A stretch of 41,864 nt of DNA from positions 1 to 41,864 of the forward strand of contig JAZGBI010000106.1 of assembly GCA_036476315.1 (NCBI GenBank), given 5' to 3'. Below the pieces are notes generated by a model that saw only the letters and a program-made list of their open reading frames with translations, was not told the DNA's origin and ran no database searches. The translations under genes and the position numbers were made by a program. This DNA is from Candidatus Neomarinimicrobiota bacterium. GTDB lineage: Bacteria > Fidelibacterota > Marinisomatia > Marinisomatales > S15-B10. Shown in pieces: positions 3,181 to 33,906 of the stretch; the stretch's first letter is position 1; every line of letters begins with the position of its first letter.

Positions 3181-3923
3181 TAATGGAGTATCCTGGATAC
3201 TCCTACCATGAGGCTCAAGAATGATGGGTGTATTTTTACCTCCACGTCGACAGCATAATGTGTGCCGAGTTCCCTGTCTAGGCCCGCAAGAAGATACGTA
3301 ACGTCCCCTTCCAACCTCTGAGGAAAAGTCACATCGCCGAGGCGGTTTTTTATGTGAACCCCAGCACTGTAAAATCCCGAACCTACCCCGATCCAGTAGT
3401 TTCGCTTATCGTAATTTATCTGTCGCACGATAGCCACTCCAACGGTTTTCAGAAAAAAATCGTCGGTACCTTCCAGATGGCCTCGTTGAAGCTCCACCAG
3501 CCAAGGTCCCCCCAGGAATAGGTCCATACCATACCGGTAGACAATGACCACATCACCTGAACTTGAAAAGGCTGTATATGCCCCATTCAGAGAGAGATTG
3601 GTTGTCACAGGAAGATTACCCTCAAATACGGGTAGCAGACCTGTTTTGCCCGAGATGGGTCGAAGGTCCGAGTGAGTGAAAGATGAAGTCATGGTTACAG
3701 TACCGCCCAGGCTCAAACGGTCACCGCTCGATTCCCTGGAAAAAAGGTGATGGGACGTTTGGAGGGTAAGGGCCTGAAAGAAGCGGCCGGCCTTTTCGCT
3801 GAACTTTGAACCTGCCCACTTACCGATATCGTAGTCCGGAACCTGGCCAGGAAGAGCTGAAAAGAACCAGGGGAAAACCGCGGCGCAAGCCAAAGGTATG
3901 AATCTAAACGAGTCCCCTTTCAC
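3180..3923 (-). CDS. unknown outer-membrane-type protein between lpxA and dxr
   Basis: I do not recognise a family. The reading frame opens at TTG 3935, but the best start is GTG 3923, with GGAG 5 nt upstream and immediately followed by a typical signal peptide (MKGDSFRF, hydrophobic core, LPG then Gln). The mature protein of about 220 residues consists of alternating amphipathic segments with many Gly and aromatic residues, such as NLSLNGAYTAFSSSGDVVIV and YWIGVGSGFYSAGVHI, and ends in LMVGVSRILH. This suggests a small outer-membrane beta barrel. It overlaps the lpxA end by about 20 bp and its stop overlaps the dxr start, so it is co-translated with lipid A and isoprenoid genes. A role in envelope biogenesis is guilt by association only. 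Confidence 0.7.
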   Translation of the reverse strand: MKGDSFRFIPLACAAVFPWFFSALPGQVPDYDIGKWAGSKFSEKAGRFFQALTLQTSHHLFSRESSGDRLSLGGTVTMTSSFTHSDLRPISGKTGLLPVFEGNLPVTTNLSLNGAYTAFSSSGDVVIVYRYGMDLFLGGPWLVELQRGHLEGTDDFFLKTVGVAIVRQINYDKRNYWIGVGSGFYSAGVHIKNRLGDVTFPQRLEGDVTYLLAGLDRELGTHYAVDVEVKIHPSFLSLMVGVSRILH

Positions 3924-4680
3924 TGTTCTCCGCAAAGGATATGATTTCTTGAATCTCCTCTGATTGTGGCAATATTTTTCTGATTTTCTGTAAGGCCTGA
4001 GTGGTATTCAAGGACGACCGATAAATAAGATGATACGCCTGCTTGATGTTTCTCCTCGATTCTTCACTGAATCCCCTTCGTTTGAGACCAGCAGAGTTTA
4101 TGCCCTGGAATCGCAGTGGTTCGCCGGCTACGGTGATGTACGGGGGCACATCCTTAATCACCCTGAATCCTCCCCCAACGAACGAGTGTTTTCCTATCTT
4201 GCTGAATTGATGAACGGCCACAATTCCTCCGATCACCGCCCAGTCATCAACGGAAACATGTCCCCCGAGCTGAACGGCATTGGTGAGAATCACATGTTCA
4301 CCTACGAAGCAGTCGTGACCCACGTGAACGTAGGCCATGATATAGGCGTGATCACGCATTTCCGTCCGCCCCCGGGCTTTCGAACCGCGGTGGACAGTAA
4401 CATGTTCCCGGAGAGTCACACCTTCCCCGATCTCAGTCGTCGTCTCCTCCCCACCGAATTTCATATCCTGGGGCACTTCCCCGATAACCGCTCCAGGGAA
4501 GACCCTGCACCCTTTCCCCAGACGGGTCCCACCTCTGAGTGTGACATGGTTTCCGATTTGACAATCGTCACCCACCACCACGTTGTCGTCAATAACAGAA
4601 AAGGGACCTACCTCCACATTGGTACCAACAGATGCGTGAGGATTGACGATAGCTGTGGAGTGGACCTTTGTGGCGATCAG
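3904..4680 (-). CDS. lpxA: UDP-N-acetylglucosamine O-acyltransferase LpxA
   Basis: First enzyme of lipid A synthesis, a left-handed beta-helix acyltransferase. Hexapeptide repeats run from the N terminus (AIVNPHASVGTNVEVGPFSV) through TVHRGSKARGRTEMRD and AYVHVGHDCFVGEHV, including the catalytic-type His region (YVHVGHDC). The C-terminal helical domain has the usual ITVAGEPLRFQGINSAGLKR. The first in-frame GTG (4617) would remove the first coil. Coding similarity continues upstream to a CTG at 4680 that overlaps the lpxC-fabZ stop as CTGA, after an AGAGAG stretch. I therefore propose a non-canonical CTG start, giving 258 residues, close to the family norm. A stop lies just upstream in this frame, so no ATG is available. 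Confidence 0.9.
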   Translation of the reverse strand: MIATKVHSTAIVNPHASVGTNVEVGPFSVIDDNVVVGDDCQIGNHVTLRGGTRLGKGCRVFPGAVIGEVPQDMKFGGEETTTEIGEGVTLREHVTVHRGSKARGRTEMRDHAYIMAYVHVGHDCFVGEHVILTNAVQLGGHVSVDDWAVIGGIVAVHQFSKIGKHSFVGGGFRVIKDVPPYITVAGEPLRFQGINSAGLKRRGFSEESRRNIKQAYHLIYRSSLNTTQALQKIRKILPQSEEIQEIISFAENSERGLV

Positions 4681-17867: not shown

Positions 17868-20297
17868 CTAGTCCTTCGGAATCAACTCCTCTTCCATGAG
17901 GAACAGAAACGGCTCATCATGAATCAGTTTCGCCCTGTCGAGAATCCACGTCACAGGAATATCGGTTTCGAACGCTTCCATGAGCCTCAAAAGATCGGAT
18001 CTTGAATCGAGGGGGACCGTGAATTTCACCTCTTCAACACCTTTGTACACTTTCAACTGATACTTGTCCCTTTTTAGCCCCGCCGCATCGCAGGCAATTT
18101 CCAGTGCCCGGTCGAGACCCCCCAATTCATCCACAAGGCCAATTTCCACGGCATCCGCGCCGGACCAGATTCGGCCCTGGGCGATAACATCGACTTCATC
18201 CCGGGAAATATTCCGGCCTTCCGATACCCGGCTCAAGAATTGCTCGTAGTAACCGTCAACGAGGGCTTGCATCCGTTGACCCTCCTCGTCACTGAAGGGG
18301 CGGTGTGAGGAAAACTGTTCGGCATGAGGTTGCTCCTTGACAACATCGATGCTGTATCCAATCTTTTCAAAAAGACCTGCGAATGACAGTTTCCCGGAAA
18401 GAACACCAATGGAACCGGTGATGGTACCGGAGTCGGCCACGATGGTATCCGCGGCGCACGAAATATAGTATCCTCCAGATCCAGCAACATCCGACATGGA
18501 AATGATAAACGGTTTCCGGTTTTCCATATCAGCTGAATCAGGGTGAGTTGTCCGGTGCACCTCTCGCCATATGTCCTCGGAGGCCAATACGGATCCCCCG
18601 GGACTGTTCACCCTCATTACTATGGCCTTCACGGACTTGTCTTCCCTTGCGGACTTAATCGCCCGGCCCGTCGTCACTGAGCCGATGATCTTACCGCCGC
18701 CGAAGGGGGAAGGTTCACTCTTACCAGGAATGATCGGACCCTCCGCATAGATAAGAGCAATCTTGGACGTCACACTTGGCTCCCAGTCGTATGCCCATTG
18801 TCTTGGACGCCGAGCGGCTCTTACAATTCTGACCTTTTCTTCCCCCGTGACTTCTTCCATTCTCGTCTCGATTTGGTCGGGATGAAAGAGACCGTCAACC
18901 AGCCCTGCCTCAAGGGCCATTTGAGGAGTGAAAAGGGCCTTATCAAAAACCTCCTCCAGTTTCTCCCGGGACCACCCTCTCCCCTGCATAATCATTCTTG
19001 AGAATACGCTGTGGACATCCGCCAGGACTGCTTCATACGCCTCACGGCTTGTCTCCGTAAGGCTATCACGGGTAAACGGCTCAGCGGCTGTCTTATAGTC
19101 TCCTCTTCGGTAGAACTGAGCCTCTACCCCGATTTTGTCAAACAGGCCTTTCAAGAAGCCCACGCCGAAGGCGAGACCGTCCACCATGAGAACTCCTCCA
19201 GTATTGAGATAGATTGAATCTGCAATGGTGGCCATTGCATAGGCGAGGTCACCCCCCATATCCATGAACGCATAAATTGCCTTTCCACTTTCTTTGAAAT
19301 CCAGAAGGGCTCGCATGACCTCCTCCATCATTCCCATTCCTGTTACGTACAGATCTGGTTTCAGTATGATGCCGTCGATCTCCTGGTTTTTCGCCATCTC
19401 GTTGATGGCGTCTGTAAGGTCTTTAAGCACCAATGTTTTGGGACCGAAGAATACCCTCGGAGTTGGAGAATCACTGAGGGGACGTTCAAAGGACAACTCA
19501 ACGTATGTTGGCGCTCTCTCTCTGAAGATGGCACGGCGAATTTCACTCGAAGTTTGAATACCCGCAAGGTTCGCCACATAGTCACTTTCAGCCAAATCGT
19601 GATAGGTTTCAACGCTCAATTCGCCAAAACCGATTCCAAAGCCGATCTGAATCCCTTCTGTTTCGAGGTTATAGCTTGCAAACAGTTTCAAGCCGTCGAG
19701 AATTTCCGCCTCTACCTGGGCAGTTCCTCCCAGATCCCTCCCGTCCGACGTGAACGATGCGGGAAATGCAAAAAGATGGTCATAGGCTACTGTGAATCGA
19801 TTTCCCAAAGGCCTTAATGCCAAACCAAAACCTGCAAGCTGGTCTTCTCGTCCATCGCGAAGCCTCGACCACAGGTTTTTCCACATAATTCCAGCAGATA
19901 AATGTGGAATACCTCGATACAAAACACCCATATCAAGTGCCTCAAGACCCTCGGAGGAAAAATGAAAAGCGTCCCCCAGATAAATCCCGTATCCCAGGTG
20001 CTGGGCACTCCCCCAGTGAAAGTAGTTCCTCCCATACCGAGCAGCGGTAAGACCCAGTCCCAGGTGACTGGTCTGGAAGTAGAAACTTGCATGAGTTGCC
20101 ACAGAGTTCCCGGCTCCCATGTCACTCCTCCCCAGGATGAGCATATTTTCTCCCCGGCCTATTCCGAGACCCGCCGGGTTCAAAACCAGACTTCCGGCAT
20201 CGTCTATGATGGCCACGGATCTGTTTGGCGCTGCAATCTCAACCTGTCCCGACGCAGCGGTCGTGATCAAGAGAAACAGCACTACATTGTATTTCAT
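17868..20297 (-). CDS. sppA: signal peptide peptidase SppA (two S49 domains) fused to an N-terminal barrel-like domain
   Basis: An 809-residue protein. After a signal peptide (AASG then Gln) comes a stretch of about 240 residues (18-260) of Gly- and aromatic-rich beta segments, for example SLVLNPAGLGIGRGENMLIL and GFGIGFGELSVETYHDL. It resembles PorV- or TraF-type outer-membrane barrels. Two S49 peptidase domains then follow, as in the 67-kDa SppA type. The catalytic Lys is in RRGDYKTAAEP (K402) and the nucleophile Ser is in DVAGSGGYYIS (S607), so the active site looks complete. SppA normally degrades cleaved signal peptides at the inner membrane. An attached barrel would place this enzyme at the outer membrane. 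GGGGG lies before the ATG. Confidence 0.88.
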   Translation of the reverse strand: MKYNVVLFLLITTAASGQVEIAAPNRSVAIIDDAGSLVLNPAGLGIGRGENMLILGRSDMGAGNSVATHASFYFQTSHLGLGLTAARYGRNYFHWGSAQHLGYGIYLGDAFHFSSEGLEALDMGVLYRGIPHLSAGIMWKNLWSRLRDGREDQLAGFGLALRPLGNRFTVAYDHLFAFPASFTSDGRDLGGTAQVEAEILDGLKLFASYNLETEGIQIGFGIGFGELSVETYHDLAESDYVANLAGIQTSSEIRRAIFRERAPTYVELSFERPLSDSPTPRVFFGPKTLVLKDLTDAINEMAKNQEIDGIILKPDLYVTGMGMMEEVMRALLDFKESGKAIYAFMDMGGDLAYAMATIADSIYLNTGGVLMVDGLAFGVGFLKGLFDKIGVEAQFYRRGDYKTAAEPFTRDSLTETSREAYEAVLADVHSVFSRMIMQGRGWSREKLEEVFDKALFTPQMALEAGLVDGLFHPDQIETRMEEVTGEEKVRIVRAARRPRQWAYDWEPSVTSKIALIYAEGPIIPGKSEPSPFGGGKIIGSVTTGRAIKSAREDKSVKAIVMRVNSPGGSVLASEDIWREVHRTTHPDSADMENRKPFIISMSDVAGSGGYYISCAADTIVADSGTITGSIGVLSGKLSFAGLFEKIGYSIDVVKEQPHAEQFSSHRPFSDEEGQRMQALVDGYYEQFLSRVSEGRNISRDEVDVIAQGRIWSGADAVEIGLVDELGGLDRALEIACDAAGLKRDKYQLKVYKGVEEVKFTVPLDSRSDLLRLMEAFETDIPVTWILDRAKLIHDEPFLFLMEEELIPKD

Positions 20298-22059: not shown

Positions 22060-22818
22060 TTAGAGATCGTTCAGGAGCTTTCGTGCCTCTTGCTGGAGAA
22101 GCCGATCGCTCTCAGACTCTGGCTTAATGGCCAGGGCCTGCTTCAGAGTCTCGGCGGCATCGTCCTCGTCATCCAGTTCAAACAGAGTCTTTCCCAGCCA
22201 AAGACGATGACGAATTTCTTCTGGCGCCTTTTCAATGGCCTTTAAGAAGTAATCCCTGGCCTCTTCAAAGCTGGCTTCAGGGGGCCTTGTGTATACGATA
22301 CTCGCCACGGTTCGTTCGAACCAGTTCAAATCCGCGAGAGAATAATGCCACCTGCCCATAACGTGATAGTTACCGTCATCCTCGAGATCCAGTTCAATGG
22401 CTCTGAGTGTGTGCTCTGCCACCTCGTATGAATTCTTGATCTTCTGTTCCGTCCCTTCAATCTCTCCCACGCGACCCGTGAGAATTCCATACCACTTATG
22501 AGCTTTCGCACTGTTCGGCGCCTTCTCCAACGCTTTCTTGGCATAATCGAATCCGGCGTACACGTTTTCTTCCACCGAACCTTCATCACCGGTGTTATCG
22601 GAAAGATCGAAGTGTGCCCTTGCCAGTCGCCATAATACCTTCCCGTTCTCCGGATCCAGACGTTCGGCTTCTTTCAACGCTTTGTAGTTCCCCTGGAAAT
22701 CGTTCCCTTCCTCTCTTTCATCGGCAATCTCAAGAAGGGTGGAGAAATCCTGACTGAGACAGATGGATAGAAGCATGACAAAGTGCAAAATCGCAATCTG
22801 AAGAATTCGTGGTTTCAT
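22060..22818 (-). CDS. exported TPR protein resembling the RMDN (regulator of microtubule dynamics) family
   Basis: Start at ATG 22818, with AGAGGG about 11 nt upstream and an immediate signal peptide (MKPRILQIAILHF, then CLS before Gln); the frame open to 22842 would add eight polar residues. The mature protein is a row of TPR helices, including LDPENGKVLWRLARAHFDLS, YAKKALEKAPNSAKAHKWYG and AIEKAPEEIRHRLWLGKTLF. The segment VMGRWHYSLADLNWFERTVA followed by PPEASFEEARDYFLKA closely resembles the core of RMDN/FAM82 proteins of animals. Bacterial members are known but uncharacterised. A periplasmic scaffold role is inference. Acidic segments, such as LDDEDDAAE, lie between helices. Confidence 0.8.
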   Translation of the reverse strand: MKPRILQIAILHFVMLLSICLSQDFSTLLEIADEREEGNDFQGNYKALKEAERLDPENGKVLWRLARAHFDLSDNTGDEGSVEENVYAGFDYAKKALEKAPNSAKAHKWYGILTGRVGEIEGTEQKIKNSYEVAEHTLRAIELDLEDDGNYHVMGRWHYSLADLNWFERTVASIVYTRPPEASFEEARDYFLKAIEKAPEEIRHRLWLGKTLFELDDEDDAAETLKQALAIKPESESDRLLQQEARKLLNDL

Positions 22819-22942
22819 GATTTGGTTGACCCTCTTAGCCATGAGAGCGGGGACTTTGTTTTCGCACGTGAGTCACCCACGATTATGTTCTAAAGCCCGT
22901 GCTATTCATGTCTCTCTTAGACCCAGCAGGTGGATAATGACG

Positions 22943-23704
22943 CTAGAAATATTCGATGTAAGTTACTTTCAGCTCCCGATTGAAATAATTCACTTTATCA
23001 CTATCGAAAAGAAGATTGTTGAAATCGAGCTCTATATGGAGACGCTCCACAAAGGTCCACCGGATGGCTGCGTTCAAATATCCACCCTTGTTGAGAGCAA
23101 TATCCCTGGCCCTGGTGTCATTCTCGTTGAGAGCAGCATTGTATTCCACCAAGAGTGATAGTTCGGGATTGACCTCCACGTCAAATCCGGCAAATCCGCT
23201 TATAGACTTATCCCCATCATCCTGCTCGGTGAAATTGTAGTTGAACCCGAAGTGGACACCGGCGTTTCCCAGAGGAGAGCGCCAGTTCTTGCTGAAAGCG
23301 AGATAGGCACCGTAGGCCTTGATACTGTACCGTTTCAAACTGTCCGCATCATTGTATGTCCCGAAGCCCTGAGTATTTAGCCCGAGAGCGATACCAGGGA
23401 GGGGTGTGGATTCGTCAATGAGGCGATACTTCAAGATGACCTCCGGCCGGGGATAGGGAATCGCCTTCCCATCCCCTATCAAATGACTGGCACCATAAGA
23501 AAGACCGAACATGAAACGATTGGTGATCCCCACGGAGAGCCCGGTGGTCAAGCCCCCACCCTTTTGAACTCGCATTTCTCCGGAGAAGGTTCCCCTGACA
23601 AGTCCGCCGGCCGTAGGAATGGTGACCAGATTTGTAGGCGGCGGATATTCCACTGCCTGAGCTGAGAGAAACGAGATGCCAAGAAGGAAAACAGAAACTT
23701 TCAT
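22943..23704 (-). CDS. outer-membrane beta-barrel-type protein, function unknown
   Basis: Chosen start ATG 23704, six bases after GGGAG, giving MKVSVFLLGISFLSA and then Gln; upstream codons to 23785 look non-coding. The mature part of about 240 residues shows regular alternation typical of a barrel, with GLSVGITNRFMFGLSYGASH, YGAYLAFSKNWRSPLGNAGV and HFGFNYNFTEQDDGD. It ends in FNRELKVTYIEYF, with an aromatic last residue as BAM substrates have. The N terminus (YPPPTNLVTIPTAGGL) recalls YjbH-like or other exopolysaccharide-associated barrels, but I assign no family. A 77-bp gap separates it from the gene upstream. Confidence 0.75.
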   Translation of the reverse strand: MKVSVFLLGISFLSAQAVEYPPPTNLVTIPTAGGLVRGTFSGEMRVQKGGGLTTGLSVGITNRFMFGLSYGASHLIGDGKAIPYPRPEVILKYRLIDESTPLPGIALGLNTQGFGTYNDADSLKRYSIKAYGAYLAFSKNWRSPLGNAGVHFGFNYNFTEQDDGDKSISGFAGFDVEVNPELSLLVEYNAALNENDTRARDIALNKGGYLNAAIRWTFVERLHIELDFNNLLFDSDKVNYFNRELKVTYIEYF

Positions 23705-23781
23705 TTTCATCTCCCGCTTTGAGGTGCTGCCAATATACTTTGAGGTCTTTCCAAAATCAAGCCCATTCGGGGATGCTCCCT

Positions 23782-24711
23782 TCAATATACAACGGGGTAG
23801 ACTGTCTTGCCGCCCTGCCTCTCAATTTCTCCAACCTGTGAAAGAGGGATTGTCAGCGTATCCTCCTCACCCATCATTTTGAACCGGACGTATCTATCGG
23901 TGATTTGAATGAGATTCACCCGCAGTATATCTCCGCTATTCAAACGGATAAGATCGGCCAGAGACCCCGGTTGCTTGCCGGGATCCCATCCGGCAGCTCT
24001 CTTCTGACGGATATCTTGAATAATCTCGGTGCTCTCCTCAAGATAGTTGGACTTTCCATCCGGAGGATTAACAACTCCAACGTGACTTACTTTTTGACCC
24101 GTTGAGTCGTATTCCGTTAGTTCGTACGTTCGGGACTCCGGGTCATGATCATAACGAAACAGGCGAATTGTTTTCCCCCGGGGTTCTTTGATCCACCGTT
24201 CCTCCTTAACTAAACCCGAGTCAAAATATTCATACAAGATGGTTCCGAGTAGGGTACCATCAACGCTTGAGAATTGATATCTGTCGATCTCTCCACCGGG
24301 AAGATAGCTGTAAATCGTCACCCGGTCACTAAACTCGCCCATATCCCGATGTGGGAATGCATAAGCGAGGAAGGCCGCCGACATCTTTTCATTTCCCCAG
24401 TACACATACATGGTTTCCACGTTGCCGGAACCATCGCGAATAGATCGCCTGAGAAGAGTCCCCGAAAAACTGTACTCGTAGATCTCTTCCTGGAGTACAG
24501 TGCCATATTCATCGATCTTCGCTTTTGACAGGAGCCGGTCATACTTGTCGTAGAAAACTCTTAGATGGTTAACGCCCGCGCGCTCTGATGCTTTCATGGT
24601 CACATCGATCTTGAAATCCTCGGCAGTCCTGTAGTATCTCACATACGAGACATCCTGAACCGCGAAGAGACTCAAACATAGGGCCAGCAGCACTGTCACA
24701 TTTCTTAACAT
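23782..24711 (-). CDS. exported protein with YD-like beta repeats, function unknown
   Basis: The 309 residues begin with a signal peptide (MLRNVTVLLALCLSLFAV). The middle consists of repeated strands of the form YDKYDRLLSKAKIDEYGTVL and YEYFDSGLVKEERWI, much like YD/wd repeats of antisense Rhs-type or MORN-like proteins. A C-terminal domain (about residues 240-309) has NSGDILRVNLIQITDRYVRF and DTLTIPLSQVGEIERQGG, which reads like a small SH3-like or SmpA-type beta fold. It follows the secreted nuclease gene by 11 bp and closes the sprA operon. No known family is recognised. Confidence 0.75.
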   Translation of the reverse strand: MLRNVTVLLALCLSLFAVQDVSYVRYYRTAEDFKIDVTMKASERAGVNHLRVFYDKYDRLLSKAKIDEYGTVLQEEIYEYSFSGTLLRRSIRDGSGNVETMYVYWGNEKMSAAFLAYAFPHRDMGEFSDRVTIYSYLPGGEIDRYQFSSVDGTLLGTILYEYFDSGLVKEERWIKEPRGKTIRLFRYDHDPESRTYELTEYDSTGQKVSHVGVVNPPDGKSNYLEESTEIIQDIRQKRAAGWDPGKQPGSLADLIRLNSGDILRVNLIQITDRYVRFKMMGEEDTLTIPLSQVGEIERQGGKTVYPVVY

Positions 24712-24722
24712 TGCAGAGTACC

Positions 24723-27533
24723 TCAGCGTAATAGAATTATTTTGCGAGCGGCCGCAAACTCAGAGCTTCCCGTTGCGGAAATGCTGCAGAGATAGATTCC
24801 AGTACTCGCCGGCTTGCCCCGATCATCCGTTCCATCCCAAATGAGAGTTCTGAAACCAGGTTCCTCAATGCCATCAATCAACGATCTCGTGTGTCTACCC
24901 AGAAGATCGTAAATGGAGATGACCACGTGCGTCCGCTTGGGCAGAGAGTAGGGAATGGTGGTCCCAGCGTTAAAGGGATTGGGAAAATTTTGGTACAGTG
25001 CAAATCCAGTGGGAACGGGATTTTCTCCATCAGCGACGGAAATGGCCCCGAATTCAGACGAGCCCATGTCAGGCGCAGATCCTGTATAGTGATGGACAGC
25101 GACGTTGATCAGCGTGTCTCCATTCCACTCAAAGAAAGGAGTCCCCGTGTAAATACATGGCGAATCTTTCAACAGACGGAAATTCCGTGTGTCTGGATTG
25201 ACAAAGAGTGGATCCGCTTCAATATTTCCTTCCACTCGGTTGACCGTGCCGTTGCCGGCACTCGCACTGGTGTCTGTCTCCGGTGAGATATCCGAGTAAG
25301 CGATGGTGACCGAACTTGAGTCACCATAAGAAGCAAACATGATTTCAACCGGTTCGTTCTCCCAGAGTATGCAGTTCACGAGCTTCGGGATTGACCCGTA
25401 GAGAGCGTAAATGCCTCCGCTGGTGAAGCCCCTGTTCCCGCTTATGGTGCAGTGGAGGAATTCTGGGGCCGATCTGTCGCAGGCAACGGCTCCAGCAATG
25501 GAGCCCTCGTTCTCGATTATGGTAGTTTGCACAATCCTGGGGCGGGAATTCCGAATGTATATTCCGGCGCCCAGGAATGCGGGAATGACGTCTTCGCCTA
25601 TTCTGTTGTGGTTAACTGTCGAATGAACTATGATTGGGGTTGAATCGTCAACGATGTACAGGCCACCACCATAGTACGTCGCCGTGTTGTCCCTGATGAT
25701 GCAGTGATCGATGGTCGGACTAGAATGTCTTATGTGAACCCCGCCTCCCCTGTCTGAATGGCCGTTCAAAAGGGTAAAGCCTGCCAGAACTGCCGTTGTC
25801 TCCTCTTGGTCTTCGAATGTGACGACGCTGCCGGCGCTGTCTCCATCGATTATTGTCCGGGAAATATAAGAGGTGTCGCCAAGAATCAAGAACCGGGAGC
25901 CAAGAACAAGATCCTTTCCCATGAAGTTGATGTTTTCAGCATAAATCCCCGGGTCAACGAGCACGGTATCGCCTTCATATGCCAGGTCGATACCTTGCTG
26001 AATAGTAGCGAATGGGCTCTCCCCGGAACCACTGCCCGTGACATCCGAACCAGTTGTGGATACATGCCAGATTGGGCCAGCGTACGGGAAATTGAATGAT
26101 CCTGGCGTTCCAAAATCCCCACTTCCGTAGGGAAGCGAAGATTCGGCCCAGTACGATCCGACATTATTGTCCAACGCCGGATCCAGAAGCGCCATGGATT
26201 TTCCTTCTGGATCTGGAAACTCTGCGCCTCCATCGTATTCCACGCGGTCAATTTCCAGACTGTCCTCATTCATCAGGATAATCTCGTCGCTGCCATTGCC
26301 CAGGGTGATAGATGAATATTCATAATCCACAAGCACACCACCGTTAAGGCTGGAATCCCCCTCTCGCCCCATGACAAAATAGTGTCCGGGCTCAACGAGA
26401 AGGGGTCCCTCGGACTCCATGACGTGCCCGTCCTCTCCTTCGTCCCGAATCGTCCAGCCACGAAGATCAAACGACGCGGTATCCGCATTATACAGTTCGA
26501 ACCACTCTCCATCGTAATCACGGACGGCGTAGGGGTTTTGCATGATTTCGTTTATGACAATTCTGGGTGCTGACGAAACCGAGGACACCGGGAATTTCCA
26601 TCCAACAGGCCGGTGGTCAGAAAGGACAGAACCGTATTCAGAAACGATATCATCGAGACGGAAGGTTGTCGCCACACCGGCTCTCGCCTCATCAAAGAAC
26701 GCCCGTGAGATGAGGATGTGGTCGAGGAAACTGGGCCAGCTGGGATAGGAATCATAATAGTCCGCCGGGTCCTGGGCCAGGGGCAGCGTAACAAAGTGAA
26801 AGTTGATGGAATCATTGAGGAATTCAGTAAATGCGTTTTCATGAGGCGGATCCACCAGGTCATCGTTCCAGTCCCCGATAACGACAAAATTGGAATCCCC
26901 GGATTCCATCTCTTCCAGCAGGTACCCGTGAAGCAACTGCGCGGATATTCGTCTCCTTTCCAGATCCGTATTTTCAAAGTTGCAGCATTTTAGATGAACG
27001 CTCATGACGGAAAAATCTACGACCCCGACCCCACATTCCCAACGGAGGTCAACTTTGAGCGGCGGTCGGCTTGCGAAATAGTAGAGGGCATTGTTCTCAT
27101 AATCGTTGTCTCCGTCCTGCCCATAGAAAGTATCCTCCCAGATCTCATCACTCCCCTTAAGTGTAAGCACCTCCTTCCTGTACAGGATGGCCGTATTCGT
27201 GTAAAGCCCTCCCTCACTGAGAACATAGCCATAATTGGGCAGGAGGGACATTAATTGATTCACGAACGTCGATGCGTCCTCGATTTCCTGCACGGCATAG
27301 ATGTCCGCCATGATATCCAGCATAACCTCCGCCACTCCATTGACTGTTGTCATGCCGAGCTGTGGGAAGTTTTCGATATTCCACGTAACCATTTCAATTC
27401 CCTGCCAGTTGTTCCAGGTTGGAATGGGCCACTCGTCTTGAGGTGGCGAGACAAGAATGGTATCGGAAGGTGGACAATCTTGACCCCACAAGAATAGAAG
27501 GTGGAAGCAGACCATCCCTGCGAGGCGGTGCAT
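24723..27533 (-). CDS. secreted EEP-family nuclease with lamin-tail, beta-helix and type IX sorting domains
   Basis: Chosen start ATG 27533, 5 bp after the upstream stop and followed by a signal-like MHRLAGMVCFHLLFLWG then Gln. The 936-residue protein has an endonuclease/exonuclease/phosphatase domain with the complete motif set (MVTWNIENF, AVQEIED, SVHLKCC, VIGDWNDDL, FLDHILIS, LSDHRPV). A lamin-tail domain follows (RIVINEIMQNPYAVRDYDGE). Then comes a parallel beta-helix of the DUF1565/pectate-lyase type (ATIQQGIDLAYEGDTVLVDP). A FlgD-like C-terminal domain ends it (LYQNFPNPFNAGTTIPYSLP, IWDGTDDRGKPASTGIYL), typical of type IX cargo. It is probably an extracellular nuclease or phosphatase displayed or released by the SprA system. 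Confidence 0.85.
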   Translation of the reverse strand: MHRLAGMVCFHLLFLWGQDCPPSDTILVSPPQDEWPIPTWNNWQGIEMVTWNIENFPQLGMTTVNGVAEVMLDIMADIYAVQEIEDASTFVNQLMSLLPNYGYVLSEGGLYTNTAILYRKEVLTLKGSDEIWEDTFYGQDGDNDYENNALYYFASRPPLKVDLRWECGVGVVDFSVMSVHLKCCNFENTDLERRRISAQLLHGYLLEEMESGDSNFVVIGDWNDDLVDPPHENAFTEFLNDSINFHFVTLPLAQDPADYYDSYPSWPSFLDHILISRAFFDEARAGVATTFRLDDIVSEYGSVLSDHRPVGWKFPVSSVSSAPRIVINEIMQNPYAVRDYDGEWFELYNADTASFDLRGWTIRDEGEDGHVMESEGPLLVEPGHYFVMGREGDSSLNGGVLVDYEYSSITLGNGSDEIILMNEDSLEIDRVEYDGGAEFPDPEGKSMALLDPALDNNVGSYWAESSLPYGSGDFGTPGSFNFPYAGPIWHVSTTGSDVTGSGSGESPFATIQQGIDLAYEGDTVLVDPGIYAENINFMGKDLVLGSRFLILGDTSYISRTIIDGDSAGSVVTFEDQEETTAVLAGFTLLNGHSDRGGGVHIRHSSPTIDHCIIRDNTATYYGGGLYIVDDSTPIIVHSTVNHNRIGEDVIPAFLGAGIYIRNSRPRIVQTTIIENEGSIAGAVACDRSAPEFLHCTISGNRGFTSGGIYALYGSIPKLVNCILWENEPVEIMFASYGDSSSVTIAYSDISPETDTSASAGNGTVNRVEGNIEADPLFVNPDTRNFRLLKDSPCIYTGTPFFEWNGDTLINVAVHHYTGSAPDMGSSEFGAISVADGENPVPTGFALYQNFPNPFNAGTTIPYSLPKRTHVVISIYDLLGRHTRSLIDGIEEPGFRTLIWDGTDDRGKPASTGIYLCSISATGSSEFAAARKIILLR

Positions 27534-27537
27534 CAAC

Positions 27538-28614
27538 TCACCGAACGATCTCCGATGCAAAGACAAACTCGAATCCTTCTTCACTGAGTCGAGAAATCTC
27601 CCGTCGAAAGGCAGCCAGTGTTTTCTCTCTGGGATGGGCGATTCCAACAGCCACCCCTACCTCCCGTGCCTTCTCTTCCAGAACGGTCAATTGATTCAGC
27701 ACGGTCTCCTCATCGTCTTCGTAGTCAAGAAAGACATGTCTCACGGCAACGGGGACGTCGGCTCTTTGCATCTGTTCCACGGCCACGGATTTTGAACTGG
27801 TTCTGCTGTCGACAAAGTATTTCCGCTCTGCCCGCAATACTTCCGCCACGGTTCTCATGAGTCGCCTGTTCTCCGTCGCATCGGATCCTTGATGATTATT
27901 CACACCCTGCGCGTGAGGAATCTCAAGAAAAGCTCTCCTCAGCCGCGAGCGAATTTCGCTCTCTTTCTGGCCGGCCTTCAAAATAAATTCCTCTTCGCCG
28001 GCACGATGATCACTCGATTCCATGGGCATATGGACCATAACTTCAAAGCCAGCGTCATGGGCAAGGTCCGCCACCCGGCTGGAGAAAGCGTGCCCCGGCA
28101 GGACGGAAAACGTTGCCGGGACTCCAAGCTCCAGAAAATCGTTCACGATACTGTTCAGGCTATATCCAAAATCGTCAATGATGAGGCAGATTTTCCCCGC
28201 GTGGGTGGACATATCGGGCGTGCAGACCAACTCCGCAAACGGTTTCTCACGTGAGCCGAGGACAAAAGTGACATCTCTCGTTTTTTTGCTGATCGTGACC
28301 TTACCTACTCCCACGTCACGGTCTTTAAGAATTCTAGGGACGCTGTTGCTGATGCCCTCGGGCGTGTATCGACGTGGGTAAAGAAATTCATATACCCGGC
28401 CGGTAAGGCTTTTTGAGTTGCGGATAAAGAAAAGTCCGAGCGTCTTTTCGAGTGTCTTTTCCCTGACAACCCGGTCCCATGCCGATGCGGTGGGCGACAG
28501 CTCACGGTCCAGTAGACCCTTCTGCCGCTTCACATTGATGTAAAAAGCAAGAAGAAGGATAAGGACCAGCAGGACAAAGAGGAAGGAATGGTCTCTCTTT
28601 CCGAGCGGATCCAT
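27538..28614 (-). CDS. divergent polysaccharide deacetylase (YibQ/DUF610) family protein
   Basis: The protein has an N-terminal membrane anchor (FLFVLLVLILLLAFYINV) and an NodB-like fold of the divergent deacetylase family. Motifs include KICLIIDDFGYSLNSIVNDF, VPATFSVLPG, FEVMVHMPMESSDHR, GVNNHQGSDATENRRLM, YFVDSRTSS and GVAVGIAHPREKT. The family is thought to act on carbohydrates in the periplasm, often near cell-division or peptidoglycan genes; its substrate is not established. The start is ATG 28614, 8 bp after the stop of the PorV-like gene (a GTG lies one codon earlier). Its place inside the secretion operon is unusual. Confidence 0.88.
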   Translation of the reverse strand: MDPLGKRDHSFLFVLLVLILLLAFYINVKRQKGLLDRELSPTASAWDRVVREKTLEKTLGLFFIRNSKSLTGRVYEFLYPRRYTPEGISNSVPRILKDRDVGVGKVTISKKTRDVTFVLGSREKPFAELVCTPDMSTHAGKICLIIDDFGYSLNSIVNDFLELGVPATFSVLPGHAFSSRVADLAHDAGFEVMVHMPMESSDHRAGEEEFILKAGQKESEIRSRLRRAFLEIPHAQGVNNHQGSDATENRRLMRTVAEVLRAERKYFVDSRTSSKSVAVEQMQRADVPVAVRHVFLDYEDDEETVLNQLTVLEEKAREVGVAVGIAHPREKTLAAFRREISRLSEEGFEFVFASEIVR

Positions 28615-28622
28615 CACCTGTT

Positions 28623-29537
28623 CTACGGCAGTCTCGTCATAACATGGAAAAGGTGAGGGACACCCAGGCGATGAGATCCAACCGCCACGCCGTAGGAGAA
28701 CCGAAATCGACGCCAGCCCACGCTCGCACCCACTGCCACTTCCGCAACCCGATGAGATGAACGCAGACCGACGGTGAGTCTCGCATCATCGATGGAGATT
28801 TCACCTGCCAGTCTGATAGTCCTCCCGTGCACCTTCGAGAACTCTGCTCCTGCCGTAAACAAAGATCTGAAGCTGCTCCTTTCAGATCCGGGTCCTGAAG
28901 ACATATGCCATGTCCCTCCTATTTGTAAGGCGGTGGGCAGGGACGGTACTTTCTCACGCATGGGGGTCATGTACCCCAAATTCTGAAGGGCCGCCGCCAG
29001 GGAGATCTGGCCCCCTGCGAGAGGCCACCAGGCACCAAGATCCACACCAAAACCTGAAGAGTTATCCACATACGACTCAAGACGAATCCAGCGAATTGTT
29101 CCTCCCAGACGCCACCGGTCAAGGCGGCGACCCCAGGTTGCTTCCACGGTCGTTCCCGATTCCTTGAAAAGGGATAGATAATCGTCAGTTGGTGTCGTTG
29201 TTCGGAGTTCCAGATCCGATATCTCCAAATGCCTGACGCTAAAGCCGAAGGTACTCCCGAAAGCAGGTTGGGCGATGAGTACCGATGTTCCTCTGGCTCC
29301 TGCGAACCACAAATTGTAACCGAAATGAACATCCATGGCCGGGATTGATTGAACAATCAGTGCCGGGTTGCCCCGGGCCAGTGAAGGATCTCCCGTAACG
29401 GATGGTGTGAAGCCCCCAAAAGCGAGTTCCCTAGGTGAGGATGGAATGGTCAGAAAAGCAGTCCCGACGGCAGAGGAATTAGCTACCAGGCTCAGAAAGA
29501 AAAATGCGGCAGAGCCCGTGAGGAGGAACCTTCTCAT
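28623..29537 (-). CDS. PorV/PorQ-family (UPF0164) outer-membrane protein, second copy
   Basis: A 304-residue exported barrel. The N-terminal region PSSPRELAFGGFTPSVTGDP followed by SLARGNPALI is the hallmark of the PorV/PorQ family. Later segments, such as GSTFGFSVRHLEISDLEL and RLGGTIRWIRLESY, alternate as in a barrel. The product ends LFHVMTRLP. The ATG at 29537 overlaps the stop of the first PorV-like gene (TGATG). It is shorter in its conserved signature than the upstream copy and is more PorQ-like. Its signal peptide leaves Val or Gly, not Gln. PorQ takes part in type IX secretion in Bacteroidota. Confidence 0.8.
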   Translation of the reverse strand: MRRFLLTGSAAFFFLSLVANSSAVGTAFLTIPSSPRELAFGGFTPSVTGDPSLARGNPALIVQSIPAMDVHFGYNLWFAGARGTSVLIAQPAFGSTFGFSVRHLEISDLELRTTTPTDDYLSLFKESGTTVEATWGRRLDRWRLGGTIRWIRLESYVDNSSGFGVDLGAWWPLAGGQISLAAALQNLGYMTPMREKVPSLPTALQIGGTWHMSSGPGSERSSFRSLFTAGAEFSKVHGRTIRLAGEISIDDARLTVGLRSSHRVAEVAVGASVGWRRFRFSYGVAVGSHRLGVPHLFHVMTRLP

Positions 29538-30472
29538 CAAAAAGTGAAAACATAGGTAAGAATATGCGACACACCTTCCCCCCTGCGACCCAGAGCGAAC
29601 GCATAATCGACGATAGCGTCATCACGCTTCAGGAGAGAGTAGTTGAGTCCCACACCCACCGCTGGAGAGAAGTTATTCATTCCCCCCCGAACGGTTACGT
29701 TGGATCTCACCTCATATTCCCCGCCCATGCGGACGCGATGAGCTGCCATGCCGTCTTCTGTGGAGAAGTAGGTGTGATCTCCCATGACACTAAACAGACC
29801 CGAATGGTAATTGAATCCGGTTCGAACCTGAATTGGGAATGGATCTCGATACGACTTCCCTTTCTCATCAAAGATGTCACCGGTGTTCCACGTGTAGGCT
29901 GCGTTCAAATCCTGAATCACGATACCCAAATCGAATTTCTCAAATTGACGGATCATGATCCCGACATCCACGCCGATTCCCTTGCTCGTCTGTTTTCCTT
30001 CAAAAGGAATGATATTTTGAAGAAGCTTAACGTTTACGCCAACGCTCAGACTCTCAAATGGTCTGTTGGAAAAGGAGAAATATAGAGCGTACTCTGATGT
30101 GGAAAGCGTACCGGTTTGGTGACCGGCCTGATCTCGACCGTCTATGTCGTCCACACCGGCATTCAGAAGTCCAATGCCCAGCCCACCGGTTGGAGGCAGG
30201 GAAGTGGCAAACGAGGCCGATACCAGATATCGATCCAGTGGCAGAAAATGGTGGAACACGGAAATCCGTCTCTTTTCAAGAAATGCAACGGCTGCCGGAT
30301 TGTGATAGGCGGAGAATCCATTGTCCACAGCCGCCGTCAAGCCGCCGCCAAGGGCCATGGATCTCGCAGTAGTTCCGACACGCAAAAAAGCTCCTGCATA
30401 ACCCCCCATGTCCGCCGCTGAAATCACGGTGGTGAATACGACAGGAATAATCGACCTTCGGAAAACCTTCAT
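29537..30472 (-). CDS. PorV-family (UPF0164) outer-membrane protein
   Basis: A 311-residue barrel protein with a signal peptide ending VISA. The signature AGAFLRVGTTARSMALGGGL followed by NGFSAYHNPAAVAFLEKRR is characteristic of PorV/LptO and related proteins. Barrel strands continue to a final FALGRRGEGVSHILTYVFTF with a terminal Phe. In Bacteroidota, PorV binds the C-terminal domain of secreted cargo and shuttles it from the SprA translocon. The neighbours here are sprA and cargo-type genes, which supports this role. Start and stop overlap both neighbours (ATGA upstream, TGATG downstream). Confidence 0.85.
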   Translation of the reverse strand: MKVFRRSIIPVVFTTVISAADMGGYAGAFLRVGTTARSMALGGGLTAAVDNGFSAYHNPAAVAFLEKRRISVFHHFLPLDRYLVSASFATSLPPTGGLGIGLLNAGVDDIDGRDQAGHQTGTLSTSEYALYFSFSNRPFESLSVGVNVKLLQNIIPFEGKQTSKGIGVDVGIMIRQFEKFDLGIVIQDLNAAYTWNTGDIFDEKGKSYRDPFPIQVRTGFNYHSGLFSVMGDHTYFSTEDGMAAHRVRMGGEYEVRSNVTVRGGMNNFSPAVGVGLNYSLLKRDDAIVDYAFALGRRGEGVSHILTYVFTF

Positions 30473-32109
30473 TTCAGAACGATGAGTTTAATCCAATGGC
30501 TTTGATCATCGTAGAACAAATTACAGAAATACGTCCCGTTTGCCACAAGTCCCCCCTGTTCGTCTCTCCCATCCCACTTCAATGTCCCCTGGCCTCCTCC
30601 CGTTTCATAGTCAATGGAGCGGACTTTTTCCATGGCAAAATTATAGATTCTGAGTTCCATCCTGGGTCTCTTGCCTCGATAGAAGAATCGGACATGACCG
30701 TCCCCGTCCACAATGTTGTACACGCTGGGAGAAAACGGGTTGGGATAAGCATACGGTTGGTTGCTGGAAACATGGGTCCGGTAAATCTCCCAAACGGGCT
30801 CATCCGTGCCGGGATCAGGAGATCTGGCCAGTCCGTCGCCGGTGCCTATGAACAGGGCTCCAAGGGAATCCGGACCCTGCCAAAAATCCCGCACATCGTG
30901 TACCACGGCGTAGACGTCATTGTCCAGAATCTCATCGTTGTTAACCGCATCCACGGCGGGCCGGAAGAGGGCAAAAGTCACGCCGTCCTCTGATTTCCAT
31001 AATCCATCTTCCGTGGCCACATAGACAAGGCTATCCACGGTATAGATGTTGTACCCTCTCCTATCTCTCAGAGCGGACACCGGATACCAGGTGAGGCCGT
31101 CATCGGGAGTGTAACTCACGCCATGGTCCTCACCGGGCTCATCGGCTCTCAGGGTCACCGCCCATATTTTCCTGACGCCCTTCCACTGCTGCCTGGCCAA
31201 TGCCACGACCCAATTCCCCGTGATGCCAGACAACGGATACGAGTAGTGAATCCAATCGACACAGCCAGACTCATCCAGTATGCCCCGGTTTATGCCTCCT
31301 GCAGTCCCAACCCACACCGTATCACCGTAGACAAGAACAGAGAAACCCTTGTGGTTATGATTGCCGTCGGGAGGGTCCCGGGGATTCAGTTCGTAATCGG
31401 AAACCTGCTCTCCACATGCCAGGTCTGTTTGAGCATCCTGGGGCAGGGGAACACGCTCCCACCCAGAACTCACATCGCTCCGGTCAAGACGCCGAAGACC
31501 GCCGGCCCAGCTTGCGATCCAGAAGTATTCGTTACCGATGGCAATATCGTAGGTAACGTTCTGCTGGGGAACCGTAACGGGAAGAGCCTCGAGAGAAACA
31601 CCACCCCATATGAGAGTACTGTCCCCACTGCTGTCGACCGGCTGACTGAAATATCGCCAGTTGACGGCTGTCGTATCTTGGGAATTAACGGAGAGCGCCA
31701 GTCCGGCGCCGGTCTGTACATCCTCGCCTGAAGTCGGATCCTCTGTGGTTGTTGCAACAGCAACGATTAACGTATCATCGTTCGCAACACCGATAGCCGA
31801 GACGCCCCCCTCGGGGAGTTTCGTTACGTTCTCTCCTCCCTTCAATTCCTGGGACGAAAGAAACGTTCTCGCGGTGAGACTGTCCCGGAGTACTGAGAGT
31901 CCCTGCCCTGTGCCGAGCCATACCAGAGTGTCCCCCTGTGTCCGGATTTCCACGATAACATTACTCTGCAATCCGGCCTGAGTTGAATCCGCGACCGTTG
32001 TCCGGGAAAGGGAAAACAGCTTCGGAAAAGGTGCCGGCGATCGTCCACGCACCTGGCCGTGGAGGACTCCCGATGACAGGACAAGGACAATGAATAGATT
32101 TCGGATCAT
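30469..32109 (-). CDS. beta-propeller protein with FlgD-like C-terminal domain (PorZ-like candidate)
   Basis: A 546-residue exported protein, signal peptide ending VLHG then Gln. Several propeller blades of the two-component-regulator type can be seen: DTLVWLGTGQGLSVLRD, DTVWVGTAGGINRGI, SLVYVATEDGLWKSEDG and ALFIGTGDGLARSPD. The C terminus (about residues 455-546) is a FlgD-like beta sandwich, YAYPNPFSPSVYNI to WDGRDEQGGLVANGTYFCNL, similar to the sorting domain of type IX cargo. PorZ, an essential type IX component in Porphyromonas, has two propellers plus such a C-terminal domain. This protein is shorter, so it could be a PorZ analogue or just cargo. ATGA overlaps with both neighbours place it next to porV in the operon. 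Confidence 0.75.
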   Translation of the reverse strand: MIRNLFIVLVLSSGVLHGQVRGRSPAPFPKLFSLSRTTVADSTQAGLQSNVIVEIRTQGDTLVWLGTGQGLSVLRDSLTARTFLSSQELKGGENVTKLPEGGVSAIGVANDDTLIVAVATTTEDPTSGEDVQTGAGLALSVNSQDTTAVNWRYFSQPVDSSGDSTLIWGGVSLEALPVTVPQQNVTYDIAIGNEYFWIASWAGGLRRLDRSDVSSGWERVPLPQDAQTDLACGEQVSDYELNPRDPPDGNHNHKGFSVLVYGDTVWVGTAGGINRGILDESGCVDWIHYSYPLSGITGNWVVALARQQWKGVRKIWAVTLRADEPGEDHGVSYTPDDGLTWYPVSALRDRRGYNIYTVDSLVYVATEDGLWKSEDGVTFALFRPAVDAVNNDEILDNDVYAVVHDVRDFWQGPDSLGALFIGTGDGLARSPDPGTDEPVWEIYRTHVSSNQPYAYPNPFSPSVYNIVDGDGHVRFFYRGKRPRMELRIYNFAMEKVRSIDYETGGGQGTLKWDGRDEQGGLVANGTYFCNLFYDDQSHWIKLIVLK

Positions 32110-32996
32110 TCAAGAACCACCACAAAATGGGAGGTGTCGCGAAACGCATTGGATTGGTCCTGCACGCGGAACCGCCATTCGAGCTCACCCGTCTTGGCGT
32201 TGTAGGGGAAGGAAATCAGGATGGAATAAACGCTATCGCCCACTGCCGTATCCCCGTGGTCTTCCTTTCCATCATCAAACAGGTAGACATGGTTTCCATT
32301 ATTGAGCATAGTATCGGGTTCAACGTGTCTGGAGGTAAAACCGACCCATTGAATGTCATCCACCCCATTGGCGTCTGTCACCTTGGCCTTAATATCCACG
32401 AGACGGGCAAAACCTGAATCCGGAAGGTTGAGCGTGTCGGGAGCATCGATCCAGAGAAACTTGGGATTGATATTTCCGAGATCGAAAGAATCGACTTTAG
32501 CCTCTACATTGTCGTCGTAATGGGCCAACACCTGCAGATAGACGATACCCGTGTCTCCATACAAAATGGAGTTCGTGTCACCGAGATCCTCAATGGGAAT
32601 CTTGACGGAGTAGACATTGTCCTTCTTGAGAATGTCGCCAAAATCGCCGTTATCACTCAGGAAAAAGGAGTCAGGTGTGGTCTGGTTGAAACCGTTGGTT
32701 CCGTACCATATGAGCTGAGCGAAAACGAGGTTATCACCATTAAAAGGATCCTTCAGTTTCGCCGAGGTGAATATCTTTTCATCCTCTTGGAGATAGTTAA
32801 ACGTGATGTCTGTGACGGGATCTGTTTCTTCCTCTGGTTCCACCGGCGTTTCGCAGGAGAAGAAAAATACGGAAATGATCGAGGCAACGATGAAATCTCT
32901 TCCTGGCACAGCGCCGGGAATATATAGGCGTCTCTTTTTCGTATCAATTATTTCTTCTCGCCACTCACTACTCACCAAGTGCTTATTCCTTTCCAT
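32106..32996 (-). CDS. probable lipoprotein in the sprA operon, function unknown
   Basis: The reading frame begins in the end of the cyclase gene. A hydrophobic segment (VASIISVFFFS) is followed by Cys-Glu-Thr-Pro and an acidic linker, which looks like a lipoprotein signal with a Cys acceptor, though the lipobox (FFS-C) is not ideal. The true start is uncertain: ATG 32996 gives a long N-terminal region; TTG 32978, spaced 6 nt from AAGGAAT, is attractive. The mature protein of about 240 residues has two beta-sandwich-like repeats: one ends DNVYSVKIPIEDLGDTNSIL and the next includes DANGVDDIQWVGFTS and GDSVYSILISFPYN. No family is recognised. Its end overlaps the propeller gene start (ATGA). 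Confidence 0.7.
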   Translation of the reverse strand: MERNKHLVSSEWREEIIDTKKRRLYIPGAVPGRDFIVASIISVFFFSCETPVEPEEETDPVTDITFNYLQEDEKIFTSAKLKDPFNGDNLVFAQLIWYGTNGFNQTTPDSFFLSDNGDFGDILKKDNVYSVKIPIEDLGDTNSILYGDTGIVYLQVLAHYDDNVEAKVDSFDLGNINPKFLWIDAPDTLNLPDSGFARLVDIKAKVTDANGVDDIQWVGFTSRHVEPDTMLNNGNHVYLFDDGKEDHGDTAVGDSVYSILISFPYNAKTGELEWRFRVQDQSNAFRDTSHFVVVLE

Positions 32997-33906
32997 AGAT
33001 GTGATGCAGTAGCAAAGTTCCCACTGTTTTCAGACTTTCGGGACTGCATTTGTCAGGAGTGTCTTCCAACGTGTGCCAGTAGTTATCTGAGCGATTGGGA
33101 TATTCAAAATCTATGATATCGACTGACGGAATGCCCCCTTCTTCAAAAACCACCACGTGGTCATCATCTACGGCATGTCCCACTCGCCACTCAAACGACG
33201 TGAGAGTCAGATGAGCGGCAAGATTCCACAACTCTCCCACCAGTTTGGGTGCCTGGCGCCATGAATTCAATTCAACGGGAAGTTGAAGGTCCTTGTCTCC
33301 CACCATGTCGATGAGGATGCAATAATCGGGCATCTGGGTGGGAATATTCTTTGCGAGATATCGCGACCCGTTAAAAAAATGGTTGCGGTCACCCTGCTTG
33401 CCAAGATCTTCTCCATCGAGGAAAATGAGGTCGACACCTGTGGCGGGTGGCAACTCATGGAAATGATGAGCGAGTTCAAGGAGGACAGCCACTCCGCTGG
33501 CACCATCATTGGCGCCAAGAATAGGACGAATGCGGTTCCTTTTCGTCTTATCCCTGTCCGCCCACGGTCTCGTATCCCAGTGGGCAGCCACCCAGAGGCG
33601 ACGGTTCAACTCCGGATTGAATTGAGCCACTACGTTTGTCAGCTCGAACATGGAACCCGAATAGGGATCCGAATAGGGAAACGGTTGAGTCAACACTTCG
33701 TCTGCAAGGGGAGAGATTACGTCCAGAATATATTTCAATCCGTCCCGGTGGCCCGGGGAGCCAGGATTTCTCGGACCCAGGGCACACTGTTCCTCCAGGA
33801 AACCGAACGCCCGCTGGGCATCGAATTCAGGCACATTCTGGGCCAAAACCAAAACGGGGAAGAGAATCCCAGTGACCCTCGATACGGTATTCGTCACCTT
33901 GAGCAT
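32983..33906 (-). CDS. glutaminyl-peptide cyclotransferase (M28-fold, bacterial type II QC)
   Basis: A 307-residue zinc enzyme of the M28 fold with signal peptide (VLVLA then Gln). Landmarks: LWVAAHWDTRPWADRD, ILGANDGASGVAVLLELA, DLIFLDGEDLGKQGD, ILIDMVGDKDLQLPVE, and EGGIPSVDIIDFEYPNRSDN with YWHTLEDTPDK. The DGASG, LDGEDLG and YWHT ligands, and the ordered GIPSVDIIDFEYP loop, point to glutaminyl cyclase rather than an aminopeptidase. Such enzymes convert N-terminal Gln of exported proteins to pyroglutamate in the periplasm. It is 28 bp behind sprA. Several products of this operon and of the envelope operon have Gln right after the predicted signal peptide. Confidence 0.85.
   Translation of the reverse strand: MLKVTNTVSRVTGILFPVLVLAQNVPEFDAQRAFGFLEEQCALGPRNPGSPGHRDGLKYILDVISPLADEVLTQPFPYSDPYSGSMFELTNVVAQFNPELNRRLWVAAHWDTRPWADRDKTKRNRIRPILGANDGASGVAVLLELAHHFHELPPATGVDLIFLDGEDLGKQGDRNHFFNGSRYLAKNIPTQMPDYCILIDMVGDKDLQLPVELNSWRQAPKLVGELWNLAAHLTLTSFEWRVGHAVDDDHVVVFEEGGIPSVDIIDFEYPNRSDNYWHTLEDTPDKCSPESLKTVGTLLLHHIYGKE

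What the first reader, a model, noticed from the sequence alone, without database searches (positions are those of the whole stretch)
32983..33906. Glutaminyl cyclase gene in the sprA operon and a Gln-after-signal-peptide pattern across the window
Predicted mature N termini begin with Gln in about 12 of 14 exported proteins here: DUF3108 (PG/Q), the 3180 protein (PG/Q), Skp (MG/Q), BamA (SA/Q), SppA (SG/Q), the TPR protein (LS/Q), the 22943 barrel (SA/Q), the YD protein (AV/Q, ambiguous), the nuclease (WG/Q), the propeller (HG/Q), the cyclase itself (LA/Q) and SprA (CG/Q). The two PorV-like proteins are exceptions. A Q-rule with N-terminal pyroglutamate is known for Bacteroidota. Its presence here, with the cyclase 28 bp behind sprA, suggests the rule extends to this lineage and is linked to secretion.
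Basis: partly seen in the sequence, partly recalled or inferred. Interest (0 to 1): 0.7.

Follow-up and report, generated by a model that had tools for sequence, protein, structure and literature searches.

The report
Glutamine-start rule beyond Bacteroidota
In a phylum of mostly uncultured bacteria (very probably Fidelibacterota, formerly SAR406/Marinimicrobia), a large share of exported proteins appear to be cut so that they begin with glutamine, and the enzyme that would seal that glutamine is encoded right behind the main secretion-channel gene across the phylum, although this protein-capping rule had been described as exclusive to Bacteroidota.

Summary
The gene at 32983-33906(-) encodes an M28-fold protein of the bacteroidal type II glutaminyl-cyclase (QC) kind, 28 bp behind sprA. 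[quoted passage not shown] With a home-made signal-peptide model calibrated on E. coli and Prevotella, Gln at +1 is 61% in this genome (51% without the window), 34-86% in four other genomes of the phylum, 67% in Prevotella, 2% in E. coli; +2 to +5 are lower in every genome of the phylum tested. The phylum is very probably Fidelibacterota (ex Marinimicrobia), not Bacteroidota. QC occurs in 143 of 149 genomes and sits just downstream of sprA in all 130 where both lie on one contig, in a conserved T9SS operon. One near-complete genome lacks the M28 QC there, carries the unrelated plant-type QC elsewhere, and still has Gln at +1 (39%). So the known Bacteroidetes Q-rule (Bochtler 2018) very probably operates here. 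'Linked to secretion' is supported as gene order only: Gln follows general Sec/SPase I substrates, and the PorV-like components are mostly exempt. Cyclisation itself is inferred.

The parts
32983..33906 (-). type II (animal/bacteroidal-type, M28 fold) glutaminyl cyclase; own N terminus ...VLVLA/QNVPEF
   Evidence: active-site residues
33935..40216 (-). sprA/sov, T9SS outer-membrane translocon; ...SPLCG/QGAN
   Evidence: TIGR04189 779 bits, PF14349, N terminus
32106..32996 (-). lipoprotein of the operon (FFFS/C), start overlaps the QC stop
   Evidence: conserved position
30469..32109 (-). propeller protein with FlgD_ig tail; VLHG/QVRG
   Evidence: PF13860; N termini across families
29537..30472 (-). 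PorV/PorQ-family protein, exception to the rule (VISA/ADMGG)
   Evidence: NF033709 95.6 bits over cut-off
28623..29540 (-). second PorV/PorQ-like protein, exception (NSSA/VGTAF)
   Evidence: NF033709 70.5 bits, below its cut-off of 90
24723..27647 (-). nuclease with lamin-tail and beta-helix domains and a T9SS sorting tail; FLWG/QDCP (internal ATG start)
23782..24711 (-). YD protein; SLFAV/QDVS, site ambiguous
22943..23785 (-). outer-membrane barrel; FLSA/QAVE (internal ATG start)
22060..22842 (-). TPR protein; ICLS/QDFS
17868..20297 (-). SppA-like protease; AASG/QVEI
   Evidence: TIGR00705 338.5 bits
7741..10098 (-). BamA; FASA/QSVQ
   Evidence: TIGR03303 471.6 bits
7100..7777 (-).
3180..3935 (-). 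exported protein; SALPG/QVPD

Best explanation
[quoted passage not shown] Shown here: the QC gene and its conserved catalytic residues, the Gln excess at +1 in this and four related genomes, the phylum-wide sprA-QC operon, and the type I QC in the one near-complete genome lacking the type II gene. Inferred: cleavage before the Gln, catalysis, and the protective purpose. The rule thus extends from Bacteroidota to a second phylum, very probably Fidelibacterota (ex Marinimicrobia/SAR406).
For: 12/14 in the window; +1 Gln 61% (51% without the window), 86%, 74%, 39% and 34% in five genomes, 67% in Prevotella, 2% in E. coli, lower at +2..+5 in all five; shuffles never reach it in the five. QC in 143/149 genomes, adjacent to sprA in 130/130 testable, conserved operon. 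52/52 QCs keep the zinc and catalytic residues and the Asp183 specific to bacteroidal QCs (PMC7948796). G082: no type II QC beside sprA, type I QC PF05096 E 3e-88 elsewhere. QC itself is a lipoprotein in ten sampled families or starts with Gln in six, incl. this one.
Against: Home-made predictor, 12-24 cleaved proteins per genome, wide bootstrap intervals (own 0.34-0.80); blind to +1 the own value is 0.24 and an earlier version gave 0.36. Trp193 is Phe/Tyr and Phe294 is not kept. M28 QC and aminopeptidase cannot be told apart by active-site residues alone (PMC5837995). No pyroglutamate data. Phylum name rests on indirect matches.
Confidence: 0.85

Rival explanations
1. The M28 protein is an ordinary zinc aminopeptidase, and the Gln start is an unrelated preference of signal peptidase I, left uncyclised or cyclising spontaneously.
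For: PF04389 is a peptidase family; some homologues were deposited as aminopeptidases; Trp193 and Phe294 are not conserved.
Against: Invariant Asp149-Gly150 and Asp183, near-invariant Trp298 and the Arg-Pro..Asp loop match QCs, not aminopeptidases, by the published criteria (PMC7948796); the near-complete genome without it has a type I QC; it co-occurs with the Gln rule throughout.
Confidence: 0.1
2. Capping is functionally coupled to type IX secretion: QC acts with SprA on T9SS substrates, which is why the genes are adjacent.
For: sprA-QC adjacency in 130/130 testable genomes and a T9SS operon around it; full T9SS with 41 sorting-domain matches and PorU.
Against: General Sec substrates carry Gln; PorV-like proteins mostly do not; G082 has its QC on another contig; in Prevotella no sprA was found within 6 kb of QC; P. 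gingivalis work argues against a sorting role (PMC5837995).
Confidence: 0.15
3. The Gln excess is an artefact of the window or of the predictor.
For: The window (12/14) exceeds the rest of the genome (51%); a flat-distance version gave 36% for the genome.
Against: The same procedure gives 2% in E. coli and 67% in Prevotella, the latter close to the published Bacteroidetes average; the signal remains without the window and in four other genomes and is strongest at +1.
Confidence: 0.04

Closest known systems
Bacteroidetes Q-rule (Bochtler et al. 2018, PMC5837995; Szczesniak et al. 2023, PMC10653852)
   Same: Gln right after the SPase I site in a large share of substrates, together with a periplasmic QC that is a lipoprotein or an SPase I substrate
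   Different: Found in another phylum, described as exclusive to Bacteroidetes in 2023 although 2018 data list high values in Ignavibacterium and Chloroherpeton; here QC is fixed behind sprA; values vary more (34-86%)
Type II glutaminyl cyclases PgQC/TfQC (6qql, 6qro; PMC7948796)
   Same: M28 fold family, Asp149/Asp183/His299 zinc ligands, catalytic Glu and Asp, Arg-Pro..Asp loop, Trp298
   Different: Trp193 is Phe/Tyr; Phe294 not conserved; activity untested
Type I (plant-type) glutaminyl cyclase, PF05096
   Same: Found in G082, the near-complete genome without the M28 QC: presumably the same job
   Different: Unrelated fold; located away from sprA; not found in the window's genome

Membership tests
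Bacteroidetes-type Q-rule | Gln at +1 in a large share of SPase I substrates genome-wide | tested here: met
   61% own, 51% without window, 34-86% in relatives, 2% E. coli; own predictor, not SignalP
Bacteroidetes-type Q-rule | an exported glutaminyl cyclase in the genome | tested here: met
   (143/149), type I QC in G082
Bacteroidetes-type Q-rule | N-terminal pyroglutamate on mature proteins | not testable with these tools
   needs proteomics
Bacteroidal type II QC (PgQC family) | zinc ligands Asp149, Asp183, His299 and catalytic Glu/Asp; Gly150 | tested here: met
   invariant in 52/52
Bacteroidal type II QC (PgQC family) | Trp193 and Phe294 lining the active site | tested here: not met
   Phe/Tyr at 193; position 294 variable, alignment there uncertain; not zinc ligands or proton-transfer residues
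Bacteroidal type II QC (PgQC family) | cyclase activity, no aminopeptidase activity | not testable with these tools
   needs purified protein
Type IX secretion system | SprA/Sov, PorV-family protein, PorU sortase, sorting-domain cargo | tested here: met
   TIGR04189 779 bits, NF033709, NF033707 697.6 bits, TIGR04183 41 matches

The most novel reading that the evidence does not exclude
In Fidelibacterota the pyroglutamate-capping enzyme is a dedicated part of the T9SS operon: capping is coupled to SprA-dependent secretion, and the Q-rule and T9SS have been inherited together since a common ancestor of Bacteroidota and Fidelibacterota.
Probability: 0.15. Interest if true: 0.75.

Novelty: new member of a known kind. 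Interest (0 to 1): 0.55.

Why it matters
The Q-rule was described in 2023 as exclusive to Bacteroidetes. Its presence across a second phylum, with a fixed sprA-QC operon, would mean that N-terminal capping of envelope proteins is older or more mobile than thought. It gives a concrete handle on the noted but unexplained co-occurrence of T9SS and the Q-rule, and predicts pyroglutamate N termini that would matter for reading metaproteomes. There is a cultured species, Fidelibacter multiformis IA91, in which it can be tested.

Tried and rejected
Early signal-peptide predictors failed: simple -3/-1 scoring often chose sites inside or too near the hydrophobic core, a fully free EM slid into it, and versions without a learned core-to-site distance gave intermediate values (own 0.27-0.36). 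The version reported was the last of this series; its distance prior came only from the E. coli and Prevotella controls. The search for related loci with this QC returned only a distant Akkermansia homologue, which has Glu at the Asp183 position and was not pursued. 16S is missing from this assembly, so relatives' 16S was used. Structure prediction was not run: solved homologues at 35-37% identity exist and a single-sequence model would add little. The shuffle null destroys whole sites and is therefore liberal, and within even E. coli passes it in the blind mode; the control genomes carry the argument.

Full report
What is there. ORF 32983-33906(-) is an M28-family protein whose nearest solved relatives are bacterial glutaminyl cyclases: 3gux, 6qro (TfQC), 3tc8, 4fuu and 6qql (PgQC), E 1e-42 to 1e-49. 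It begins 28 bp after the stop of sprA (TIGR04189, 779 bits). At background Gln content, 12 or more of 14 has a probability of 1e-15 or less.

Is it genome-wide? SignalP was not available, so I called genes on 677 kb of this genome, on stretches of four relatives, on Prevotella sp. oral taxon 299 (positive control, NC_022111) and on E. coli K-12 (negative control), and fitted a mixture model of the SPase I site. Positions -1 and -3 use fixed general preferences, the distance from the hydrophobic core was learned only from the two controls, and the +1 distribution was estimated per genome from its own background composition as start. Gln at +1: this genome 0.61 (0.51 without the window), G110 0.86, G053 0.74, G082 0.39, G075 0.34, Prevotella 0.67, E. 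coli 0.02. The next positions are lower in all five genomes of the phylum (own: +2 0.24, +3 0.06, +4 0.12, +5 0.08). Bootstrap intervals are wide (own 0.34-0.80). With +1 ignored in site choice the figures fall (own 0.24, Prevotella 0.51, E. coli 0.08), because few sites are then placed with confidence; sites in this phylum often have G or S at -1 and L at -3. The Prevotella value is close to the published Bacteroidetes mean of 71% (PMC5837995, PMC10653852), which supports the procedure. The estimator was developed over several attempts (see Tried and rejected); earlier versions gave lower values for this genome (0.27-0.36), always well above E. coli relative to background.

Which organism? 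The assembly has no 16S. 16S of two relatives is 71-73% identical to Prevotella and 74-78% to E. coli, and carries an exact match to the SAR406-97 probe site (probe sequence from memory and not found in the library; match). G075 is a single contig of 2,788,509 bp with 46.0% G+C in the 400 kb sampled; the type strain Fidelibacter multiformis IA91 has a complete 2.79-Mbp genome of 45.6% G+C (PMC11652737). The phylum is therefore very probably Fidelibacterota (formerly Marinimicrobia, SAR406), which that paper finds distinct from Bacteroidota. This identification is indirect.

Conservation of the pair. QC was found in 143 of 149 genomes of the phylum and SprA_N in 144. In 130 genomes both lie on one contig, and in all 130 QC is just downstream on the same strand; in the other 10 that have both they are on different contigs. 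In one locus from each of 20 further families the order, where the stretch reaches that far, is mostly Ham1 - sprA - QC - (sometimes another gene) - lipoprotein - propeller with FlgD_ig - PorV/PorQ-like proteins - polysaccharide deacetylase; some members are not detected in some families. The gap from sprA to QC is often -4 to 42 bp. In Prevotella no sprA was detected within 6 kb of QC. This genome has 41 T9SS sorting-domain matches and a PorU sortase over cut-off.

Is it a cyclase? PMC7948796 lists features that part bacteroidal QCs from aminopeptidases. In 52 sequences of this phylum the counterparts of Arg128, Asp149, Gly150, Glu182, Asp183, the Asp248 equivalent and His299 are invariant; Pro129 (48), Asp132 (46) and Trp298 (49) are nearly so; Trp193 is Phe or Tyr and Phe294 is not kept (numbering mapped by motif). 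In ten sampled families QC has a lipobox, as PgQC does; in this genome and five other families it has a type I signal peptide followed by Gln.

A natural replacement. G082 is the one genome at least 90% complete without this QC at E 1e-10; it has only a weak M28-like match at E 1e-6 inside a 1123-aa frame. It is also the one genome with a strong type I (plant-type) QC, PF05096 E 3e-88. Its operon reads Ham1 - sprA - a 285-aa ORF - lipoprotein - propeller - PorV-like - PorV-like, with QC missing, and the type I QC lies on another contig. Its +1 Gln is 0.39. The simplest reading is that QC activity is what is being kept; it is one case.

What is not shown. Pyroglutamate was not seen. A specific tie to type IX secretion is not shown: general Sec substrates (BamA, SppA, the Skp-like protein) carry Gln, the propeller does so in most families, while the PorV-like proteins of the same operon mostly do not. 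In P. gingivalis, N-terminal Gln did not act as a generic sorting signal (PMC5837995). Protection from aminopeptidases, as proposed for P. gingivalis (PMC10653852), is the best-supported purpose and is inferred here.

Prior knowledge. Bochtler et al. 2018 already noted high Q-values in Ignavibacterium album (77%) and Chloroherpeton (55%), so an extension beyond Bacteroidetes was foreshadowed, although the 2023 paper says 'exclusively'. I found no paper in the open library on the Q-rule, glutaminyl cyclase or a sprA-QC operon in this phylum; subscription papers were not searched. I file it as a new member of a known kind.

Noticed in passing
L146 (G082:C86:25001-45000) and L147:13942-14712: Apparent non-orthologous replacement: type II QC missing between sprA and the lipoprotein, type I (plant-type) QC on another contig.
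   Followed up: partly
window 28623-30472 and homologues in L204-L222: The PorV/PorQ-like proteins are a consistent exception to the Gln start across the phylum; most families have A, E, D, T, S or G-type starts there.
   Followed up: partly
L146:12147-13004: In G082 a 285-aa ORF (PrmA-like by eye, untested) sits between sprA and the lipoprotein; the longer QC-to-lipoprotein distance in some other families leaves room for a similar gene.
   Followed up: no
window 22060-22842: TPR protein matches Pfam RMD1-3 (regulator of microtubule dynamics, E 2.9e-27), a family named from eukaryotes.
   Followed up: no
window 24723-27647: Secreted endonuclease/exonuclease-family domain joined to a lamin-tail domain, a beta-helix and a T9SS sorting tail: a likely T9SS cargo.
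   Followed up: no
G053 and other f15/g19 genomes (0.7-1.0 Mb, most estimated 85-98% complete): Strongly reduced genomes keep sprA and QC side by side and, in G053, a high +1 Gln (74%), which suggests the system is costly to lose.
   Followed up: no
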